Shown piece by piece: positions 5,354-26,651 of a stretch of DNA of 32,776 nucleotides. Both the position numbers and the translations under genes were made by a program. Every line of letters begins with the position of its first letter. Within the stretch, counting starts at the first letter, position 1. Source of the DNA: Sorangium cellulosum (lineage in GTDB: Bacteria > Myxococcota_A > Polyangia > Polyangiales > Polyangiaceae); contig DYPH01000068.1 of assembly GCA_020720045.1 (NCBI GenBank), positions 1 to 32,776 on the forward strand, written 5' to 3'. A model generated the notes under the pieces. The model did no database searches. It saw nothing but the letters and a program-made list of their open reading frames with translations, and was not told the DNA's origin.

Positions 5354-5359
5354 CTGCTC

Positions 5360-5695
5360 GGAACCGCCGGAGGCGGTGAGGAAACGGCGCGCACACACGG
5401 AGCTGCGCGTCCGCCCGGAACCGCCGGAGGCGGTGAGGAAACGGCGAGCACGGATGCAGATGCGCGTCCGCCCGGAACCGCCGTAGGCGGTGAGGAAACG
5501 GCGAGCACGGATGCAGATGCTCGTCCGCCCGGAACCGCCGTAGGCGGTGAGGAAACGGCGAGCACGGATGCAGATGCTCGTCCGCCCGGAACCGCCGTAG
5601 GCGGTGAGGAAACGGCGAGCACGGATGCAGATGCGCGTCCGCCCGGAACCGCCGTAGGCGGTGAGGAAACGGCGAGCATGGATGCAGACGTGGAT
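5360..5695 (+). repeat. 57-bp minisatellite, six copies
   Basis: Units begin at 5360, 5417, 5474, 5531, 5588 and 5645, each opening GGAACCGCC. Each contains a small hairpin, ACCGCC-NNN-GGCGGT, with core GGA in copies 1-2 and GTA in copies 3-6. Copies 3-6 are nearly identical, pointing to recent expansion. The unit is 19 codons long, so frame is kept. The array begins 7 bp after a stop codon. There are no unique spacers, so it is not a CRISPR array. Confidence 0.95.
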
Positions 5696-12634: not shown

Positions 12635-13315
12635 CTAGGGACGCTGGGCGCACTTCTTCGTCAGGTAATCGAGGGCGACCTGCACAAAGGCCTCAAGGGC
12701 GCCGCTTCGGGGCGTCGCCGCGAGCGCCAGCAGCTTCCGCGGGTCGGCACCACGCGCGAGTTGCCGGCCGAGGCTCTCCTGAACTTCGGCCCGATTGCGC
12801 ATCAGTGTCCGCGCATTCAGGTGGAGGTTGTCGATCATCGCCTGCGCGTCGCGCCGCTGGGCCTCGCTGAGCGTTTCGGTCACCTTGATCTCGCCGGTCT
12901 TCGTGTAGCGAAAGTGGGACTCGAGCTTCACCACGATGCACGGGTGGAGCGGCAACGGTTTGGCGCCGCGGTATTTGTCGCAGTGGTCGTCCCCGTTGGA
13001 CGTGCCTTTGCAGCTCCCGAGGAGGTTCTCCCAGACGAAGGTCTTCGAAGCGTCGACCGACCGAGCCGCGAAGTGCTCGATGGTCATGGTGCTTTCGGCG
13101 AGCTTCGCGAACGCTTCGTCGGTGTCGGTGTCGGGGCCGGTGCTCGGGCCGATCCGCGATTGGCCACGGGGAGTCGCGCGTGGAGCTGCGCGAGCAGCTC
13201 TGGAGGGACCAGCAGGGCTTGTGCGCCTACTGACGGAGCTCCAGTCGGCGCCCGGCGTTTCCCGGTAGCTCTTGAGGCAGCTCGGTTCAGGCTTCGTCTT
13301 TCGTAGCGTCCGCAT
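12635..13315 (-). CDS. PtuB-like HNH nuclease gene with a 69-bp internal inversion
   Basis: The 226-residue frame begins MRTLRKTKPEPSCLKSYRE and continues to PGADW, the typical start of the TIGR02646-type (retron/Septu-associated, PtuB-like) HNH family. It later has MTIEHFAARS, WENLLGSCKG and HCDKYRG, matching the His and second zinc/catalytic parts. Between DWSS and SRIGPS the expected L-x-x-Q...GLCAYC block is missing; instead there is an Arg/Ala/Pro-rich stretch. The missing block is encoded on the plus strand at 13164-13232. Un-inverting those 69 bases gives LREQLWRDQQGLCAYC in frame with both flanks. As it stands the protein lacks its first CxxC and is probably inactive. The start overlaps the ATPase stop by 29 bases, so the two are one operon. 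Confidence 0.8.
   Translation of the reverse strand: MRTLRKTKPEPSCLKSYRETPGADWSSVSRRTSPAGPSRAARAAPRATPRGQSRIGPSTGPDTDTDEAFAKLAESTMTIEHFAARSVDASKTFVWENLLGSCKGTSNGDDHCDKYRGAKPLPLHPCIVVKLESHFRYTKTGEIKVTETLSEAQRRDAQAMIDNLHLNARTLMRNRAEVQESLGRQLARGADPRKLLALAATPRSGALEAFVQVALDYLTKKCAQRP
13164..13232 (+). other. Inverted 23-codon segment inside the HNH nuclease gene
   Basis: The plus strand here reads HGESRVELREQLWRDQQG then LCAY and the first two bases of a Cys codon. Joined to the minus-strand flanks, the codons across both junctions become GTC (Val) and TGC (Cys), giving the CAYC motif. In the present orientation the minus frame also has no stop. No convincing inverted repeats flank the segment; the only similarity is weak (CGATTGG versus CGACTGG, offset by 8 bp). 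An internal hairpin, GAGCTG/CAGCTC, lies at 13183-13200. Confidence 0.75.
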
Positions 13316-14564
13316 CGCCGTCCCCCTCGGCAAACTTCAGGTCCCAGCGGGCCGCCACCACCGCCGCATCGTTCTCCCCAAGTTGGATCGCCAGCGCCGC
13401 GAGACGCCCCCGTGCCTCGGCGAAGTTCCCGGCGTCGATGGCTTCGCCAACGGCGTCGATCGCCTGGCGGGTCGCCTCGGGCCGCGCCGGCACATCGAGC
13501 CGATCGAGGACGCCGTTCGCGTCTTGGCCATGAAGGTGGGGGAGCGGACGCCACCCGTCGGGCAGCTTCGGATCGAGTTCAAGGACCGAGCCGGCCGGCG
13601 CAGCGGCGATGAGGATCGGCGCGTGGGTCGTGACGATAAACTGGAGCTTCGGGAAGGCCTTCTGAAGGTTCGCGAGCACCGTCGCCTGCCAGGCCGGGTG
13701 GAGGTGAAGATCGAGTTCGTCGATCAGCACGACGCCGGGCGTCTGTGCGGCAGCGTCCTCCCCGAAATGGGGATTGAGCGTGTAGGCCCGCCAGAAGAGA
13801 TCGGTCGCAAGGAGAAACAGCGAACGCTGGCCGTCGGAGAGGTGGGAAATCGGTCCCCCTGTTTCGTGCTTGCCGATTGCAAGCATGGGCTCCTCGAAGT
13901 GCGGGCCCCAGTAGGCGATGGCGCTATCTTCAAACAGACTAGAGAGCGGATCTCCGAGACCTACGATGCCTGGCGGAGGGCCCTTTTGTGCCAAGACTCC
14001 GGCGGTCTCTCGGCGCAACCAATCGGAGAATCGGTGAGGATCATTCGCCGACTCAAGCGCCGCCAAGTAGCCGGCGGTTCGCGACAGCGGGCCCTTTTCG
14101 AAGGTGCGACCTTTGCGCTTGGAGAGCCAAAGGCGCCCCGTTGCGTAGTGGGCGACCAGCGGCAGCGTCGTGGACGCGTCGGTGAGAGTTTTCTCCGCGG
14201 TCGTTGCTGCGGCAAAGAGGTCCTTGCCGGTCGTCCTGGTTCGACCGCGCACGTTCGCCAGGGACCTGCTCCACGCCATTTCCTCTCCGCCAGCCAGGAC
14301 CGCGGTCGCCGCGACGCTCACCGGCCAAGCGCGTTCAAACCCGACGAGGCGTGCGTCTTCCTTGACGATCGGGCGGAGGTCGGCGGCGGCGACGTCGCGA
14401 AAACCGCTCAACCAGCCGCCGAGCGCGATCGCGATCCCATCGACGACCGTGCTCTTCCCGGAGCCGTTCCGGCCGACGAGCACCGTCGGTCCGGCCGCGG
14501 GGAACGTCAGCGCGAACTTCTCGAAGCCGCGGAAGTTTTCAAAGGTCAGGCTGGTGAGGCGCAT
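13287..14564 (-). CDS. PtuA-like ABC/SMC-type ATPase (Septu/retron-associated family)
   Basis: The protein has 425 residues from the ATG at 14564. It begins with MRLTSLTFENFRGFE, a typical start for RecF/SMC-like ATPases, then Walker A GRNGSGKS at 31-38, a divergent middle domain, the ABC signature LSDGQRS near 242, Walker B VVLIDELDLHLHP from 278, and the switch histidine in VTTHAP near 314. This architecture next to an HNH gene is that of PtuA with PtuB in Septu anti-phage systems and some retrons. No reverse transcriptase is present. The 44-bp gap to the upstream protease has no visible terminator. The ATPase itself appears intact although its partner gene is rearranged. It is clearly different in sequence from the second cassette's ATPase at 24640. 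Confidence 0.85.
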   Translation of the reverse strand: MRLTSLTFENFRGFEKFALTFPAAGPTVLVGRNGSGKSTVVDGIAIALGGWLSGFRDVAAADLRPIVKEDARLVGFERAWPVSVAATAVLAGGEEMAWSRSLANVRGRTRTTGKDLFAAATTAEKTLTDASTTLPLVAHYATGRLWLSKRKGRTFEKGPLSRTAGYLAALESANDPHRFSDWLRRETAGVLAQKGPPPGIVGLGDPLSSLFEDSAIAYWGPHFEEPMLAIGKHETGGPISHLSDGQRSLFLLATDLFWRAYTLNPHFGEDAAAQTPGVVLIDELDLHLHPAWQATVLANLQKAFPKLQFIVTTHAPILIAAAPAGSVLELDPKLPDGWRPLPHLHGQDANGVLDRLDVPARPEATRQAIDAVGEAIDAGNFAEARGRLAALAIQLGENDAAVVAARWDLKFAEGDGDADATKDEA

Positions 14565-14608
14565 GGGGCGGCGGGGTTTTCTCACAACCGCGGGGAAAGC
14601 GCACGCGC

Positions 14609-17035
14609 TCACCCCCGTCGGCGGCGGGTGATGGCGAGGGCGAGGAGGGCGATCGCGCTTGCGACGGCCCCCTTCGGGGCGCGGCCGGGGGCGTAGGCGC
14701 AGTGGGCGTCTTCGCGGGGATCGGCGGCGGCGGGCGCGGCGGGGGGACCGGCGTCGCGGGGGGCTCCGGCATCAAGGGGCCCCGCCGGGCAGGTCACCTT
14801 TTCGGGGCCGACGCGCTTGTCCTTGCAGTGGACGCCGATCCTCCGGTTCCCGTCGGCGGGATCGGGGAGGCACGCGTCGCCATCCGGCTGATCGGCACAG
14901 AGATTCGGGCAGACGAGCTTCGGCGTGCCGTCGCCAGCGACGCTGCAGGCGGTCCCCGAGGGGCACTGGAACCCGGCGCCCGACTTCCCGCCGACGCACT
15001 GGACTGCACTGAAGGCGCCGTCGTTCCTGCAGTAAAAGCCGTCGGCGTGCCCTTCGCAGAGGGTCGCCGGGAGGCCGCCTTCGGGGAGCGTCGCGGCGCC
15101 GGTGCAGCCGGTGCGGAAGGTCTTCTGGTCCTTGGCGCGGACGAGGCCGACCGCCCCCCACGCGCACAAAAGCGCCTTCTTGGCCCGCGGCGTCGTTGCG
15201 GCGTCGATCAGCTTTCCGGCGGTCTCCAGGAGGGTCTTCGGCAGGCGGGCGCTGAGAGCCTTCGGGGCGAGGAAGGCGGCGGCGTAGGTCTGGCTCATTT
15301 CCTCCCAGGTCGCCGGTTCGGGGACGCTCGCGCCGGTCTCCGGTTCGCTCCCCCCTTGCACGGCGAGCGCGAACGCGTGGTTGCCGATGCCCGAGTTCGA
15401 ATGGGCGCCGGCGTTGTCCTCCCAGAGGACCTTGTTCCCGGCGGTCGGTGTCCCCTGGTAGGCCTCCCCCATCCAGCGCGGCTGCCCAGCGACCCCCTCA
15501 TGCGGGTTCGCGAAATCCCGCAGCGGACGCCCGCCGTCGAAGTTCGCCACCACCGCGAGCGGGGCGTCCGGCGTCTGTTCGTGGTTGTAGATCACGGCGA
15601 AGGCGTCGGCGACGTGCTCGGCGACGGTCCACGTCTGCGGAAGCACCTCGTCGGCCTTGTGCGTCTCTTTCGGGTCGTAGGGCGCGAGCGGGGTGACGGT
15701 GAGCGCGTGGGCGAACTCGTGGACGAGGGTGTCGCGCGTGACGAACCATTTCGATGCCGCCAACCCCCGCTGGACGGGAGCCCGATTCTCCCAGGATTGG
15801 GATGGGATCGGCTTCAACATGCACGGCGGGCGGATCCCAAAGACCTGCACCTTCGCGTTCCACATCGAGCCGTTGCAGCCGTTGTCGAAGAGGCAGACCA
15901 TGATCGGAGCGCCGGCGCCGTTGAACGAGTTCGTCTTGTATTTCTTGTGGAACCACCCCTCCGCTTCGATGAGGTTCGGGTAGGCGTCGACCATCCCCTT
16001 CGCGTGTTCGGCGGTCAACAAGGTGGTGGGGAGCCCGCTCGGGTCCGACGGCGGCGGATCGCTCGTCACCACCATGCCATTGAGCTGGGTGCCGAAGAGG
16101 TCGCCGACCCAGTTCCACTCGTCGCCGGGGGTCGCCCGCGCCTCCTCCTCGGTCAGGGAGCGGCAACGATTGACGGTGAAGCGCGGCGTGCGTGCGTCGT
16201 AGCCGGCGATGCCCGGGAGCGGAAAATTCGGCTTCGTGCGGAGGAAAAACCGGCCGCCGTCTTCATCGACCGGGAAGCTGCGCGTCCCCTCGACGGGCGG
16301 CGAGCCGACCTTCGTCACGCCGACGGCGGTACCAACCTGCATCACGTCGGCGTCGGTGAACCCCTCGAAGCTCGCGACGCCGGTGCGCGCGTTGACGCGG
16401 ACTTGGGCGGGCCCTTTTGCGGTCGTCCCGTCGATCGCGTAGCGGAGCCCGTAGGTCGTTGTTCCGTCGATTTGCTCGACGACGAGCTCGGCGTCGCCGA
16501 CCGGCCCAAAGGAGTCGCCGTCGGGGGTCGTCACCTGCGCCGCGGCGGCGATCGCTTGTGCCGGGGTGATCGTCGCCGGCGGGAGCGGCCCATCGATGGC
16601 CCGGAGGGAGCCGATGACGGCGCGCAGCGAGCCGTCTTTGGCGATGCGAACGAGCAGGTCGGTCTCCAGCACGCGCCCGCCGGAGACGACCTGGCGGAAG
16701 GAGACGTCGGTCGTGCCGTCGGCGGCGACCTCCGTGCCGTTCAGAACGAGCGTCGCCGGATCGCGCACGCCAAAGAGCGCCGGGTGGGCGACGATCAGGT
16801 CGCGGGCGAAGGCGACGAAATCGCCGGTCGCGAAGACCGGGTCGGCGTCGGGGCCGGGGAGCGCCACTTCGACGAGGCCGGTCTGGTCGCCGCGGAGGAG
16901 CATCCACGTGTCGTCTTCAAAGGGCTCGGCGGCGACGGTCGGGCGCGCCGGAGCGCTGCACGCGGGGAGCGAAGCGCCGAGGAGCAGCGCGAGCGAGGGG
17001 GCGAGGACAGCCAGGAGCGCGGGGGTGCGTTTCAT
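14609..17035 (-). CDS. Secreted M4-like (thermolysin family) metalloprotease with MYXO-CTERM-like tail
   Basis: The protein has 808 residues. The lipoprotein-like signal ends LPAC with Cys 26. A long propeptide follows (FTP-type region about 40-150, PepSY-like strands to about 235). The catalytic domain has the zinc motif HEFAH at 439-443, the third-ligand motif E473-x3-D477 (EHVAD), and the downstream His of AHSNSGIGNHAF near 545, as in thermolysin. The Cys-rich region 640-760 resembles small disulfide modules. The end (Cys, then about 17 hydrophobic residues, then RRRR) resembles a MYXO-CTERM sorting signal. The family degrades extracellular protein, which would fit scavenging or predation. 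It is followed by the PtuA-like gene and preceded by a propeptide-only paralogue. Confidence 0.88.
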   Translation of the reverse strand: MKRTPALLAVLAPSLALLLGASLPACSAPARPTVAAEPFEDDTWMLLRGDQTGLVEVALPGPDADPVFATGDFVAFARDLIVAHPALFGVRDPATLVLNGTEVAADGTTDVSFRQVVSGGRVLETDLLVRIAKDGSLRAVIGSLRAIDGPLPPATITPAQAIAAAAQVTTPDGDSFGPVGDAELVVEQIDGTTTYGLRYAIDGTTAKGPAQVRVNARTGVASFEGFTDADVMQVGTAVGVTKVGSPPVEGTRSFPVDEDGGRFFLRTKPNFPLPGIAGYDARTPRFTVNRCRSLTEEEARATPGDEWNWVGDLFGTQLNGMVVTSDPPPSDPSGLPTTLLTAEHAKGMVDAYPNLIEAEGWFHKKYKTNSFNGAGAPIMVCLFDNGCNGSMWNAKVQVFGIRPPCMLKPIPSQSWENRAPVQRGLAASKWFVTRDTLVHEFAHALTVTPLAPYDPKETHKADEVLPQTWTVAEHVADAFAVIYNHEQTPDAPLAVVANFDGGRPLRDFANPHEGVAGQPRWMGEAYQGTPTAGNKVLWEDNAGAHSNSGIGNHAFALAVQGGSEPETGASVPEPATWEEMSQTYAAAFLAPKALSARLPKTLLETAGKLIDAATTPRAKKALLCAWGAVGLVRAKDQKTFRTGCTGAATLPEGGLPATLCEGHADGFYCRNDGAFSAVQCVGGKSGAGFQCPSGTACSVAGDGTPKLVCPNLCADQPDGDACLPDPADGNRRIGVHCKDKRVGPEKVTCPAGPLDAGAPRDAGPPAAPAAADPREDAHCAYAPGRAPKGAVASAIALLALAITRRRRG

Positions 17036-17213: not shown

Positions 17214-18044
17214 TCACGGACACGGCAGCTGCGGCTCGCCGTAGGTCCCGAGCATGGTGAATTCCGTCGAGCCGGCGAAGCTTGCCTCCCCCGTTCGCGC
17301 GTTCACCCGGGCGGCGGCGGCCCCGTCGGCGGTGGCGCCGTCGACGTTGTAGTTGAGGATGTACTCGGTGCTCCCCTCCTGCTCGACCACAAGCTCGGCA
17401 GAGACGGGGTAGAACTTCCCGCAGGTTTTTGTTTTTACCGCGCGGGCGAGGACGAGCGCCTGCTCGGCGGTGATCGTCGCCGGGGGGACCCGCCGGATCG
17501 CCCGGAGGGAGCCGTTCACCGCGCGCAGCGTGCGGTTCTTCGCGATGCGGACGGTGATCCCGGTTTCGAGCACCCGCCCACCGGCAACAAACTGCGTAAA
17601 GGTGACGTCGGTCGTGCCATCGTCGGCGACGTCGGGGGTCCCGTCGAGCACGAGTTGGGAGGGGTCGCGGATGCCGAACAGGTCGGGCCGGCTCAGGAGG
17701 AGCCTGCGCGAATAGCTCACGAAGTCGCCGCGGACGGCGACGTAGCCGGCATCGGGCCCCGGGAGCGCCGATTCGACCAAGCCGGTCTGTTCGCCGCGGA
17801 GGAGCATCCAGGTCCTCTCGTCAAAGGCCCACCCCGGCCTCTTGGACGCGGCGGTCGGCTCCGGCGGCGGCGGCGGAGGCGGCTCCGAGGCGCGAAAGAC
17901 CATCGCGCGGACTCTCCAGTCGAGGTCGTTCGTTCCGGGGGCGCGGAGCGCAAAGGCAACCTTCTTCGCCGGCGTCCCGGCGGGCGTATACGCGCACGAG
18001 ACCACCAGCACCGCCAACGGGGCAAACGGGGAGAGCCATTTCAT
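17214..18044 (-). CDS. Propeptide-only (FTP-like) lipoprotein, paralogue of the adjacent protease pro-region
   Basis: The product has 276 residues with a lipoprotein signal (LAVLVVSC, Cys near 17) and a Pro-rich linker. From about residue 74 it follows the propeptide of the downstream M4 protease almost residue for residue: TWMLLRGEQTGLVESALPGP against TWMLLRGDQTGLVEVALPGP, then DGTTDVTF, GGRVLETG and LRAVNGSLRAI. It ends just after RVNARTGEASF, where the protease would continue into its mature enzyme. M4 pro-regions act as folding chaperones and inhibitors, so a tethered stand-alone copy could inhibit or fold a protease in trans. That role is inference. It could instead be a gene that lost its catalytic half. 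Confidence 0.75.
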   Translation of the reverse strand: MKWLSPFAPLAVLVVSCAYTPAGTPAKKVAFALRAPGTNDLDWRVRAMVFRASEPPPPPPPEPTAASKRPGWAFDERTWMLLRGEQTGLVESALPGPDAGYVAVRGDFVSYSRRLLLSRPDLFGIRDPSQLVLDGTPDVADDGTTDVTFTQFVAGGRVLETGITVRIAKNRTLRAVNGSLRAIRRVPPATITAEQALVLARAVKTKTCGKFYPVSAELVVEQEGSTEYILNYNVDGATADGAAAARVNARTGEASFAGSTEFTMLGTYGEPQLPCP

Positions 18045-18098: not shown

Positions 18099-19493
18099 CT
18101 ACGCGAAGAGATCGAGGGCCGTCCGCGCTTCCGGCGAGAGGAACCCTCGATTCTCCAGGTGCTGGACCGTGGCGAGGACGCTGAGCGACGATCGGGCGGC
18201 GAGCGCGCGGGCATCGCCGAGCCCGAACGGGCCGTTTTGGGTCGCTGCGCGCGCGGCGCCGTCGGGGAGGAGGAGCATGGCGGCGAAGGCCCGCGCACGG
18301 GCGGCGGCCGGGGAGCTTTCGGCAGCGCCGTCGATCGCGAGCCCGTCCCCATCCAGCAAGAGGTGTCCGAGGGCGGTCGCATACCGGAACGGAGCCGCCC
18401 CGGAACTCGCGTCTACCGCGATCGCGCCGCCGCGCGCGTCGGAACGCCGGGCGATCAGCGTGAGCCCGCCCGCGGCGAGCGGCCGGACATCAACCTGCTC
18501 TTCACGCAGCCACGCGGCGAGCGGAGGCGCCGGCTCGTCCCCCCAGGCGAGTTCCTCGCGGACCTCCTCGGCGGCGTCGTACCCCGCTTTCCACGGGCGC
18601 ACGCGGGCCGGCCGCGACGGGCGGACCAGGGCGCGGAGCCGCTCGGACATCGGACGGTCGGGCAGGCGTGCCGCCTCAAGGACGACGCGAACCTCCTCCG
18701 GCGACCGCGCCCGTGCGCGCGCGAGGACGCGTGTGGTCTCTGTGTGGGGGAAGTAGAGCCCGTTGCAGGTCGCGAAATCGGCGGCGAGCGCCGAGCGCTG
18801 TCTCGGATCGAGGGCGGCGAAGGTCTCCGCCGGGAGGAGCCACCGCCACCCGGGTTCGCTCACGTCGCGAACCAGCTCGAAGCCAGGCGCCTGCGAAAGA
18901 CGTTCGACGATCGCGGCGCGGACGACGGCCCCTGCGCCTTCGAGGACCTCCGCCACCGGACGGGCGGCGACCGTCACCGCCCCACGGAGCTCCGTGTAGC
19001 GAAGGCCGGGGTGGGAGGTCCCCCACGTTTCGTTGTCCCAGGAGATTTCGAGCTCGTCGCCGGCCCGTCGAAACGCGACGTTCGGCAGGGCGATCGCGAG
19101 GGAGGCGCGGCGGAGCCCGTGAGAATTCCGCCACTCGGAGCGTCGTGCGAACCAGGCACGCTCGTCGGCCGCGTCGAAACACTCCTCGGTTTCGTTGAAC
19201 CAGTCGGACGCGTCGGTAACGGTGCGGGGCGTGAGGAGCGGGAGCGGCTCCTCGTTCACCAGGCGAACTCCGGCGCGCGCAAACCAAGAGAAGACCTCGC
19301 CGAGGTCCCCCTCGACCGCGTCGGTCGTGGTTCCGTCTTCGTGGTGGGTCGCCCGAGTCAGGCAGAGCCCCGCCGCCCACAGCTCGAGGGCCCCCCAAGC
19401 TACCTCGTCGCGCGGACCGGAGCTAAGGGAGACGCGGAGCGCAAACGAAGACGTATCCCCGAACTGCCGTGAAAACCATACGTTGCGATTCAT
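18099..19493 (-). CDS. ImmA/IrrE-like protein with lost metallopeptidase motif
   Basis: The protein has 464 residues from the ATG at 19493, 24 bp after the kinase stop. The N-terminal half (ALELWAAGLCL, the WFARAGVRLVNEEPLP block, LPNVAFRRAGDELEISWDNETWG) resembles a domain I associate with large ImmA/IrrE-type proteins. The C-terminal quarter has the ImmA/IrrE layout: PFRYATALGHLLLD, then a gap, then ARARAFAAMLLLP, then a helical segment ending with LSVLATVQHLENRGFL. In active enzymes the first motif contains HExxH; here the first His and the Glu are replaced (TALGH), so zinc hydrolysis is unlikely. It could act as a sensor or regulator. Assignment is by motif layout and is moderately sure. 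Confidence 0.55.
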   Translation of the reverse strand: MNRNVWFSRQFGDTSSFALRVSLSSGPRDEVAWGALELWAAGLCLTRATHHEDGTTTDAVEGDLGEVFSWFARAGVRLVNEEPLPLLTPRTVTDASDWFNETEECFDAADERAWFARRSEWRNSHGLRRASLAIALPNVAFRRAGDELEISWDNETWGTSHPGLRYTELRGAVTVAARPVAEVLEGAGAVVRAAIVERLSQAPGFELVRDVSEPGWRWLLPAETFAALDPRQRSALAADFATCNGLYFPHTETTRVLARARARSPEEVRVVLEAARLPDRPMSERLRALVRPSRPARVRPWKAGYDAAEEVREELAWGDEPAPPLAAWLREEQVDVRPLAAGGLTLIARRSDARGGAIAVDASSGAAPFRYATALGHLLLDGDGLAIDGAAESSPAAARARAFAAMLLLPDGAARAATQNGPFGLGDARALAARSSLSVLATVQHLENRGFLSPEARTALDLFA

Positions 19494-23961: not shown

Positions 23962-24235
23962 GAGCCTTCGGAACCGAAATCGGGACGCTCCACCCTTCGC
24001 CCGAGACTTCCGAACCGACGTTCGAAGGCAAAACTCTTCGAGGCGAGACTTCTGAACCGAAATTCGAAGGCGAAACTCTTCGAGGCGAGACTTCCGAACC
24101 GAAATTCGAAGGCAAAACTCTTCGAGGCGAGACTCCCGAACCGAAATTCGAAGGCAAAACTCTTCGAGGCGAGACTCCCGAACCGAAATTCGAAGGCTCC
24201 CCCCTTCCGCCGAGACTTCGGAACCGAACTCGGAC
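23962..24235 (+). repeat. 42-bp minisatellite, five good copies plus degenerate flanks
   Basis: Good units start at 24003, 24045, 24087, 24129 and 24171, each opening GAGACT and containing GAACCGAA with TTCGAA. Degenerate copies begin at 23962 and 24212, each offset by 41 instead of 42 bp. Each unit carries the inverted pair CTTCGA/TCGAAG. The period is 14 codons and no frame is stopped on either strand, so long spurious open frames run through it. There are no spacers, so it is not a CRISPR array. Confidence 0.93.
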
Positions 24236-24639
24236 GGGGGGGCGTCCTTGGTGAGGCCCGAGGCGGCGACCCCCTCCCCTCCTCTCAGACACGAGTGGGG
24301 CAAAGTGCCTCACGACGGCGGGGGGACTTTCGTGGCACCGTCTCAGGTGCTGACGGGCGCCGGAATCGGCGGTGCTTCAGCGTTTGTATGGCTGCTCGCC
24401 GTTTTCTGACCCCCCACGCCGACGAGCACCTGGCTGTTTTTGGAGTGCAGAACCTGTGAGGCCGACAGTGCCCCCCCTTTTCATCGCCTCGCTCGCAGTC
24501 CTTGGGCTCGAGCGGGGCGCTCCTTTGTGGTTTGCCGGCGAAGGCCGGTCTGATCGAGAAGGTCGGCCCCTGAAGATCGCCCTGAACAGCTGGCCAGGAC
24601 GTTCCCCGAGGCGCCGTCTTCGTGCCAACATGCGCGCCG
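24236..24639. other. Intergenic region before the second ATPase-HNH cassette
   Basis: I see no supported gene here. A short plus-strand frame ending at about 24409 has a hydrophobic end (SAFVWLLAVF) but no ribosome site. The region should contain the promoter for the cassette, but I cannot point to convincing -35/-10 boxes. No reverse transcriptase gene or recognisable retron RNA was seen. Confidence 0.4.
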
Positions 24640-25923
24640 ATGCGCATCGACACGTTACGCCTCAAGGATTTCCGCGGCTTCGACACGTTTGAACTCTCGC
24701 TCCACCCTGAGTTCAACCTCCTCGTCGGCGAGAACGGGAGCGGGAAGACCTCGATCCTCGAAGCGCTGACGGTCGCTGCCGGCGCCTTCTTGCTCGGGAT
24801 CCATGGCGAGGACAGTCGCCCCCTTCGCGAGGAGGACATTCGCATCGTCGCGAAGGAGGGCATCTGGGAGCGGCAACCCCAGTGCATCGTCGCCGCCAGC
24901 GGCGAGGTCAAGCACCAGCCCCTTACGTGGAGCCGAGAACTTCGGCCGGGGGGGCGCACCACGAGCAAAAATGCCCACGCGATCAAGAGGATCGCCGCGT
25001 CCCTCGAAGCCGAGGTTCGCCAACACACGCAGGATATCCTTCCGCTGATTTCGTCCTACGGCGTCGGGCGCCTCGTCGACGTCCCGCGTGCGCAGACCAA
25101 GCTCGCCGACGACGACCTGCTCGGCACGACGGCCCTCTCCCGCGTGTACGGGTACCGGACGAGCGTCGACCCCCGCATTCCGGTGAATGAGCTTCTCCGC
25201 TGGTTCAAGACCGAGGAGCTCCGCGCCCTCCAAAAGAAGGAGCGCTCCGCAACCTACGAAGCGGCACGCACCGCGATCCTCGGTTGCATGGACGAGGCGA
25301 CGGATATCGCCTTCGATCTGGATCAGCTCCAGGTCGTCGTGACCTTCGCAAAGACCGGCCAGCGGTTGTTTCCGCATTTGAGCGCGGGGCAGCAGATCAT
25401 GCTCACGCTCGTTGCGGACATCGCGCGGAAAGCGGCGACCCTGAATCGGCACCTCGGAGAACACGTGCTGCGCGAGACTCCGGGTATTGTCCTTATCGAC
25501 GAACTCGATCTCCACCTCCATCCCCGGTGGCAACGTCGCGTCATTGAGGACTTGCGCCGCACGTTCCCGAAGCTTCAGTTTGTCTGTACAACCCACTCCC
25601 CGTTCCTGATTCAGTCGCTCCGCTCCGGCGAGGAGTTGCATGTCCTCGGAGGGCAGCCATTCGCCACGCTTGGGAACAAGTCGATCGACATGATCGCGCG
25701 TGGCATTCAGGGCATTGAGCGGCCGGAAGTGAGCGACCGGTACGCGGCAGAAAAAGCGGCTGCGCGGAGTTACTTGGAACTGCTCGACGAAGCGGCGTTG
25801 GCCCCGGCGGAGAAGCTGGAGGCCTACAAAAACAAGTTGGCGGAAGGCCGCGAACTCTTCGCCGATAACCCCGCCGTCCAAGCGATCCTCGAGATGAAGC
25901 GCGTGGCGAAGCTCGGGGAGTAG
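24640..25923 (+). CDS. PtuA-like ABC/SMC-type ATPase, second cassette
   Basis: The protein has 427 residues from the ATG at 24640; a GTG at 24622 in frame adds six residues without support. It opens with MRIDTLRLKDFRGFD, then Walker A GENGSGKT at 30-37, a middle domain from about 90 to 240, signature LSAGQQ near 247, Walker B IVLIDELDLHLHP from 283, and CTTHSPFLI with the switch His near 319. The C-terminal third (about 335-427) is helical and presumably contacts the nuclease. The next gene, an HNH nuclease, starts 2 bp after the stop. This is the PtuA/PtuB layout of Septu-type defence. It has no reverse transcriptase partner here. All key motifs are intact. Confidence 0.86.
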   Translation: MRIDTLRLKDFRGFDTFELSLHPEFNLLVGENGSGKTSILEALTVAAGAFLLGIHGEDSRPLREEDIRIVAKEGIWERQPQCIVAASGEVKHQPLTWSRELRPGGRTTSKNAHAIKRIAASLEAEVRQHTQDILPLISSYGVGRLVDVPRAQTKLADDDLLGTTALSRVYGYRTSVDPRIPVNELLRWFKTEELRALQKKERSATYEAARTAILGCMDEATDIAFDLDQLQVVVTFAKTGQRLFPHLSAGQQIMLTLVADIARKAATLNRHLGEHVLRETPGIVLIDELDLHLHPRWQRRVIEDLRRTFPKLQFVCTTHSPFLIQSLRSGEELHVLGGQPFATLGNKSIDMIARGIQGIERPEVSDRYAAEKAAARSYLELLDEAALAPAEKLEAYKNKLAEGRELFADNPAVQAILEMKRVAKLGE

Positions 25924-25925
25924 CC

Positions 25926-26651
25926 ATGCGACCGGTTCAAAAGGGAACATCACCCGTCGCTACGCCGCCAGGATTTGCGAACTACGAGGACGCGAAGCCC
26001 GACCTGATTTCGCGGTTAGGGCCCTACTGTTCCTACTGCGAGCGCAAGATTGTCACGATACTCCACGTCGAGCATCTCCAACCGAAGGGGCTCCCGAAGT
26101 ACGCACACCTGGAATTGGCGTGGACGAACTTTCTCCTCGCATGCGTGAATTGCAACTCGACGAAGTTGACCAAAGACGTCCTTTTTGCCGACCTGTATTT
26201 CCCCGATCGGGACAACACATTCGCCGCGTTTATCTACACGCCAGACGGAAAAGTTGCCGGCAACATATCTGCGAATCCAACCATTTCTGCCGCGACGCTT
26301 GCGCTCACGGGATTCGCAAACAAGCGTTCCGTAGCAATCGATACAAATGGCAAAGAGGTTGCGATCGATCGCGGGGCCCAGCGAATGGAAGCGTGGCTGC
26401 TCGCCGAGGAATCGCGTAACGATTTTGCGAGTAATCCAAGTCCTGAACTCCTGCGGTCGACGGTACGGACGGCGGTAGCGTGCGGTCACTTCAGCATCTG
26501 GATGACCGTGTTCGCGGGGGACGTGACCATGAGAAACGCGCTTATCGACGCCTTCCCCGGCACGCGGGCCAGCGGCTGCTTCGACGCCCAAGGTAATCCC
26601 GTTTCCCCGGCGCCCAACCCCGACCGCTTGGCCGACGGTGGCAAAGTTTGA
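25926..26651 (+). CDS. PtuB-like HNH nuclease, second cassette
   Basis: The protein has 241 residues, 2 bp after the ATPase stop. The start (MRPVQKG) and the block Y-x-DAK-x5-SRLGPYCSYCERKI are family hallmarks. Zinc and catalytic motifs are complete: CSYC at 35-38, VEHLQPK with the metal-site His at 50, WTNFLLAC with Asn 68, and CVNCNSTK with the second cysteine pair at 73 and 76. It should cleave nucleic acid when activated, with the ATPase acting as sensor or control. GC content is lower than in adjacent genes, consistent with transfer. It converges with a minus-strand lipoprotein gene one base away. Confidence 0.85.
   Translation: MRPVQKGTSPVATPPGFANYEDAKPDLISRLGPYCSYCERKIVTILHVEHLQPKGLPKYAHLELAWTNFLLACVNCNSTKLTKDVLFADLYFPDRDNTFAAFIYTPDGKVAGNISANPTISAATLALTGFANKRSVAIDTNGKEVAIDRGAQRMEAWLLAEESRNDFASNPSPELLRSTVRTAVACGHFSIWMTVFAGDVTMRNALIDAFPGTRASGCFDAQGNPVSPAPNPDRLADGGKV

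What the first reader, a model, noticed from the sequence alone, without database searches (positions are those of the whole stretch)
13164..13232. Precise 69-bp inversion removes the CxxC zinc motif of a PtuB-like nuclease while keeping the frame open
The minus-strand HNH gene has family sequence on both sides of a stretch that does not fit. The plus strand of that stretch reads LREQLWRDQQGLCAYC-like sequence, exactly the missing block. Inverting 13164-13232 on paper gives a continuous frame, with both junction codons sensible (GTC and TGC), and restores CAYC followed by QSRI, as in the family. The segment is 23 codons and neither orientation has a stop in the gene's frame, so both orientations give a full-length protein: one with the zinc knuckle, one without. 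This could be an intragenic on/off inversion, a fixed inactivating event, or an assembly error. No long inverted repeats flank it, which argues against a classical recombinase switch.
Basis: partly seen in the sequence, partly recalled or inferred. Interest (0 to 1): 0.88.

Follow-up and report, generated by a model that had tools for sequence, protein, structure and literature searches.

The report
Flipped segment in phage-defence nuclease gene
A 69-base piece of a bacterial anti-phage nuclease gene lies backwards in this genome sequence, which very probably breaks the nuclease; it looks like a single recent accident or an assembly mistake rather than a genetic switch.

Summary
In the minus-strand PtuB-like HNH gene (12635-13315) the block 13164-13232 lies reversed. 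Of 77,155 in-silico inversions of the gene, the best family-profile score is exactly this one (172.5 bits; 119.3 as is). Curated models agree (TIGR02646 65.5 to 93.0 bits). A homology-free coding model, with both flanks required to look coding, ranks it first of 246 genes. The block carries the family's CxxC.

The interpretation weakens in two points. Inversion never changes length, and 76.9% of 69-bp inversions here stay open, so frame-keeping is no sign of design. The event is equally 67 bp. No inverted repeat flanks it, and no Ku or Resolvase-family hit was found in the genome. No other homologue tested has its block on the opposite strand.

Best reading: one recent, lossless micro-inversion that inactivated PtuB of a Septu-type pair with intact PtuA. 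A local assembly error is nearly as likely, since only a 357-contig draft and no reads were available. A reversible switch is unlikely.

The parts
13164..13232 (.). Inverted block; its plus strand carries the sense block HGESRVELREQLWRDQQGLCAYC of the minus-strand gene. Equivalent minimal interval 13165-13231.
12635..13315 (-). PtuB-like HNH endonuclease gene (226 aa from ATG 13315; an upstream TTG at 13333 is also in frame); C-terminal part matches the family, the N-terminal CxxC block is scrambled by the inversion
13287..14612 (-). PtuA-like AAA_21 ATPase gene, upstream partner, overlapping the ptuB ATG by 29 bases; intact by profile coverage (PDLC00278 positions 1-429 of 436)

Best explanation
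A two-gene Septu-type (PtuAB) anti-phage operon has lost its nuclease through one recent, lossless micro-inversion of 67-69 bp inside ptuB. The flipped stretch encodes a helix and the first conserved cysteine pair (CxxC) of the HNH protein. The resulting protein is full length but should not fold its nuclease half, so the system is probably inactive although PtuA is intact. The inversion has essentially blunt borders (1 bp of shared end) and looks like an accident, such as a double template switch or a break and rejoining without help from repeats, not a site-specific switch. Shown: the inverted block, its borders, the loss of two family-invariant cysteines, the absence of repeats. Inferred: that the inversion exists in the cells, that it is recent, and that function is lost.
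For: The exhaustive inversion scan peaks exactly at the interval. Curated family models rise. A homology-free coding model ranks the segment first of 246 genes when support on both flanks is required. C48 and C51 are among 13 invariant columns of 12 aligned sequences, i.e. the inverted protein and 11 homologues. AlphaFold2 gives the as-is protein pLDDT 59.6 and pTM 0.48, with most of residues 1-130 under 50; the homologue L018, with the same 11 relatives as alignment, gives 84.5 and 0.83 and matches solved PtuB structures. These are two different proteins, so this is a comparison and not a controlled test. The flipped block is undamaged when read in the family orientation (GC3 1.00; identity to 11 homologues 38-57%, against 29-42% outside the block), which fits a recent event. 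No second copy of the block was found in the genome with up to 3 mismatches in 31 bases. In retron-Eco7, PtuA or PtuB alone caused no growth arrest, only both together (passages of PMC11555353), so loss of PtuB should silence the pair.
Against: No reads were available, and the assembly is a 357-contig draft. All 59 human-chimpanzee micro-inversions of PMC8755829 (passages) are flanked by inverted repeats of 3-75 nt, with two exceptions placed within -5 to +4 nt of the borders; none is here. Ku was not found, so canonical end joining is not an obvious route. The undamaged block fits an assembly error just as well.
Confidence: 0.5

Rival explanations
1. Local assembly or library error: the organism has an intact ptuB, and a short piece was placed in the wrong orientation when the contig was built.
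For: Draft of 357 contigs. The block is fully conserved in the family orientation, with no sign of decay. No repeat, Ku or Resolvase-family hit explains a biological inversion. Local assembly errors that no read supports are described for metagenome assemblies (passages of PMC7111523). Whether this draft comes from a metagenome is not known.
Against: Two breakpoints with no base lost or gained and no repeats is not what repeat-driven misassembly gives: the flipped segments that PMC7111523 looked for lay between perfect repeats longer than the read-pair span (passages). I know of no standard assembler step that flips 69 bp without overlap or gap (recalled, not tested). No other convincing inversion was seen among 246 genes, though the scan had low sensitivity.
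Confidence: 0.43
2. A reversible intragenic switch that turns the nuclease off and on by flipping the CxxC block.
For: Both orientations are open. Intragenic invertons are a published kind (Chanin et al. 2024, seen only as a reference-list entry; content recalled).
Against: No inverted repeat of 3 bp or more with inner edges within 5 nt of the borders. No Resolvase-family hit in the genome. The four phage-integrase-type hits lie on other contigs. An open frame is expected in 76.9% of such inversions. None of 39 whole-genome-found loci other than the window's own has the block on the opposite strand; these 39 include at least five repeat fetches, and in 5 of them the block was not detected at all.
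Confidence: 0.04
3. The present arrangement is the native sequence of a distinct PtuB subfamily without the CxxC.
For: Only the as-is gene itself. One weak relative, L044, shows no clear block.
Against: The opposite strand carries the family block at E 3e-6 to 5e-6. As-is GC3 of the stretch is 0.435 against 0.819 for the whole gene. Of 18 places over the TIGR02646 cut-off in 177 genomes, 17 start at profile position 22 or less and only this one at 34.
Confidence: 0.01

Closest known systems
PtuB of Septu and type I-A retrons (TIGR02646, NF041761; PDB 8EEA, 9NNB, 9N69)
   Same: C-terminal part of the family profiles, gene order with PtuA, family-invariant cysteines and histidine outside the block; the homologue L018 folds like 9NNB and 8EEA
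   Different: The block with the first CxxC is on the other strand. I noticed no reverse transcriptase among the window ORFs (not searched by profile), and Rfam gave no match in the window.
Micro-inversions by template switching or microhomology-mediated repair (PMC8755829 and PMC8604942, passages)
   Same: Short pure inversion with an exactly copied segment
   Different: 69 bp against 17-33 bp (human-chimpanzee set) and 2-5 bp (yeast spacer inversions, arms longer than 9 bp); no inverted repeat at the borders here
Intragenic invertons (phase variation; definition recalled)
   Same: Segment inside a coding gene, open in both orientations
   Different: No flanking inverted repeats, no candidate recombinase found on the contig, no evidence of both states

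Membership tests
PtuB / TIGR02646 | Profile score over the curated cut-off | tested here: met
   As is 65.5 bits, cut-off 52.15, but covering only profile positions 34-144
PtuB / TIGR02646 | N-terminal block with CxxC on the sense strand | tested here: not met
   Found on the opposite strand only; the other 17 of 18 places over the cut-off begin at profile position 22 or earlier
Retron Ec78 PtuB equivalog NF041761 | Score over 150 bits | tested here: not met
   82.3 as is, 116.5 with the block inverted in silico
Septu (PtuAB) operon | PtuA-type ATPase gene next to PtuB | tested here: met
   window 13287-14612, PDLC00278 positions 1-429 of 436, E 9.6e-93
Septu (PtuAB) operon | Anti-phage activity | not testable with these tools
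   needs a phage assay
Inverton | Flanking inverted repeats | tested here: not met
   longest edge repeat 2 bp
Inverton | Invertase gene in the genome | tested here: inconclusive
   Resolvase PF00239: 0 of 1 genome; PF00589: 4 places, none on this contig, not classified further
Inverton | Both orientations present | not testable with these tools
   no reads; one copy of the block in the assembly
Template-switch micro-inversion | Inverted repeat of 3 nt or more at the borders | tested here: not met
   control distribution

The most novel reading that the evidence does not exclude
The block flips back and forth in the population by a recombination process that needs no inverted repeats, toggling a costly phage-defence nuclease between an armed and a disarmed full-length form.
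Probability: 0.03. Interest if true: 0.85.

Novelty: new member of a known kind. Interest (0 to 1): 0.32.

Why it matters
If real, it is a clean example of a defence nuclease knocked out by a micro-inversion that leaves length and frame intact. Pseudogene screens that look for stops and frameshifts would miss it. If it is an assembly error, it shows that such errors can sit in a genome scored 100% complete and mislabel a defence system. Either way, testing every inversion of a gene against a family profile finds it objectively and could be run over many genomes.

Tried and rejected
Hairpin or quasi-palindrome at the borders: palindrome scores at the two borders are 4 and 6 in the un-flipped sequence (81% and 18% of 1,500 random positions reach them) and 5 and 7 as is (43% and 6%); the mean is 4.49. 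Flank-to-flank imperfect repeat: score 6, random mean 5.96. Strong fold of the segment: -16.4 against a mean of -13.2, with 20% of 400 random 69-mers as low.

Repeated micro-inversions in this genome: 18 stretches plus the window, 246 genes after dropping 48 of 294 gene calls that the model did not support. With support required on both flanks it ranks first at 30.0 bits; 88 other genes pass 8 bits and 3 others pass 20. I translated 12 candidates, including the two of those ten that do not lie near an ORF end, and judged them by eye only: misplaced starts, ORFs running over an opposite-strand gene or past a break, or low-complexity linkers. None was checked against homologues. Sensitivity was limited: 68% of 149 implanted 69-bp inversions at 8 bits or more, 32% at 20, 19% at 29. 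So other inversions in this genome are not excluded.

A second assembly of the same species: none found. The only other same-genus genome held gave one 41-base hit and not the locus. The first genome-contig scan confirmed no relative among 27 pattern matches, and the tool says that records very near the window's genome may be left out. The second scan used a pattern made of the block itself, so its 80 loci cannot testify to the block's presence and are counted apart. Of the 34 whole-genome-found loci with the block on the same strand, at least five are second fetches of the same place. Loci with no C-terminal hit at E 1e-3 were left out of that count, and the 18 stretches were not examined in it. 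The homologues behind the profile were found with the in-silico inverted protein (two are paralogues of the same genome); the curated models are free of that bias. Metagenome scans were capped at zero. PMC12318543 is not held.

Full report
What is there. The window is contig C122 of a 6,340,530-base, 357-contig draft. Among the best-matching named relatives of its PtuB are records of Sorangium cellulosum (L070) and Polyangium fumosum (L074). Minus-strand ORF 12635-13333 (ATG at 13315, 226 aa) follows a PtuA-like ATPase gene, 13287-14612. NCBIfam models see only its C-terminal part: TIGR02646 from profile position 34 of 144, NF041761 from 57 of 218.

Is the inversion real in the sequence? Inverting 13164-13232 gives the family block HGESRVELREQLWRDQQGLCAYC between SSV and QSRI. 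The alignment with 23 homologues shows the same block in the same place; L018 reads SSVHG across the first junction. To remove choice, I scanned every inversion of 21-150 bp in the gene: 77,155 intervals, 53,487 distinct proteins scored with a profile that does not contain the window gene. The top is exactly 13164-13232 (172.5 bits), then 166.3; the gene as it stands scores 119.3 and the best non-overlapping inversion 127.9. That profile's members were found with the inverted protein as query, so the independent check is with curated models: TIGR02646 65.5 to 93.0, NF041761 82.3 to 116.5, PDLC00322 83.8 to 133.4. A codon-position model trained on this genome, blind to homology, gives 30.0 bits for 13154-13231 and ranks it first of 246 genes when both flanks must look forward-coding; without that condition it is 11th. 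GC at third positions of the stretch is 0.435 as is and 1.00 inverted.

What is not remarkable. Inversions keep length, so the downstream frame is always kept; only stops inside matter, and 76.9% of 69-bp inversions in this gene have none (57,626 of 77,155 over all lengths). The end bases are complementary, so 67 and 69 bp are the same event. 'Both orientations open' is therefore expected.

Consequence for the protein. In 12 aligned sequences (the inverted protein and 11 homologues), 13 columns are invariant, among them C48 and C51 (in the block) and H81, C102 and C112 (outside it). That these cysteines bind zinc is recalled from HNH enzymes and not shown by a call. AlphaFold2 gives the as-is protein pLDDT 59.6 and pTM 0.48, with the first 130 residues mostly under 50. 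The homologue L018, with the same 11 relatives as alignment, gives 84.5 and 0.83, and its solved matches are led by retron Ec78 PtuB (9nnb, E 9.1e-11) and include E. coli Septu PtuB (8eea, E 1.5e-9). In retron-Eco7 only PtuA and PtuB together stop growth (passages of PMC11555353). The likely result is an inactive defence pair.

Where else does it occur? In 177 genomes of the order, 18 places pass the TIGR02646 cut-off (one of them only with its neighbours in the frame); 17 start at profile position 22 or less and only this one at 34. With separate profiles for the block and for the rest, the loci found by whole-genome search (the window's own five fetches apart) have the block on the same strand in 34, on the opposite strand in 0, and not detected in 5. 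Of those five, one is cut by a contig end, one shows an RGLCAFC block below threshold, two have a CMYC variant and one shows no clear block. The 34 include at least five repeated places. The 80 loci found with the block as search pattern are on the same strand by construction and are not evidence.

How could it arise? The longest exact inverted repeat with inner edges within 5 nt of the borders is 2 bp and the shared end is 1 bp, no more than at random positions. The micro-inversions of PMC8755829 have repeats of 3-75 nt there, with two exceptions in placement (passages), and yeast spacer inversions have arms longer than 9 bp (PMC8604942, passages). Ku was not found, nor Resolvase-family proteins; four phage-integrase-type genes lie on other contigs. 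So no machinery for a programmed flip was found, and the usual accidental route lacks its signature. That leaves a rare repeat-independent accident or an assembly mistake. The block is undamaged in family orientation, which both predict. Local assembly errors are described for metagenome assemblies (PMC7111523, passages), but a lossless two-breakpoint flip without repeats is not a form I saw in the passages I read there or in PMC9661791 (passages). I put 0.50 on a real recent lesion, 0.43 on an artefact and 0.04 on a switch.

Verdict. The biology, if real, is an inactivated Septu-type operon in which a micro-inversion hides the lesion from stop-codon screens. Reads decide.

Noticed in passing
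window 24622-26651 (+): A second PtuA-like and PtuB-like pair about 10 kb away on the other strand; its PtuB keeps YCSYCERK in the forward frame (PDLC00315 E 4.3e-71).
   Followed up: partly
G000 contigs C336, C103, C132, C334, C248 and C122: The genome has at least eight TIGR02646 matches, three over the cut-off; the second PtuB-like gene of the window is not among them.
   Followed up: no
window 5359-5688 and 24002-24197: Two high-identity tandem arrays (57-bp unit x 5.8, 42-bp unit x 4.7), apparently between genes.
   Followed up: no
window 17214-18044 (-): ORF that by eye (translations) resembles only the N-terminal part of its neighbour 14609-17035, which has M4-peptidase and propeptide matches; possibly a truncated duplicate.
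   Followed up: no
L044 1579-1824 (G006:C429): A PtuB relative whose C-terminal part is clear but whose CxxC block was not detected on either strand.
   Followed up: partly
L033 (G175:C429): A PtuB relative with in-frame stops shortly before RGLCAFC, probably a pseudogene.
   Followed up: partly
L052 16802-18649: A long ORF whose last part turns arginine- and serine-rich, as if read past a frame break; one opposite-strand reading of 18191-18340 has no stop.
   Followed up: no
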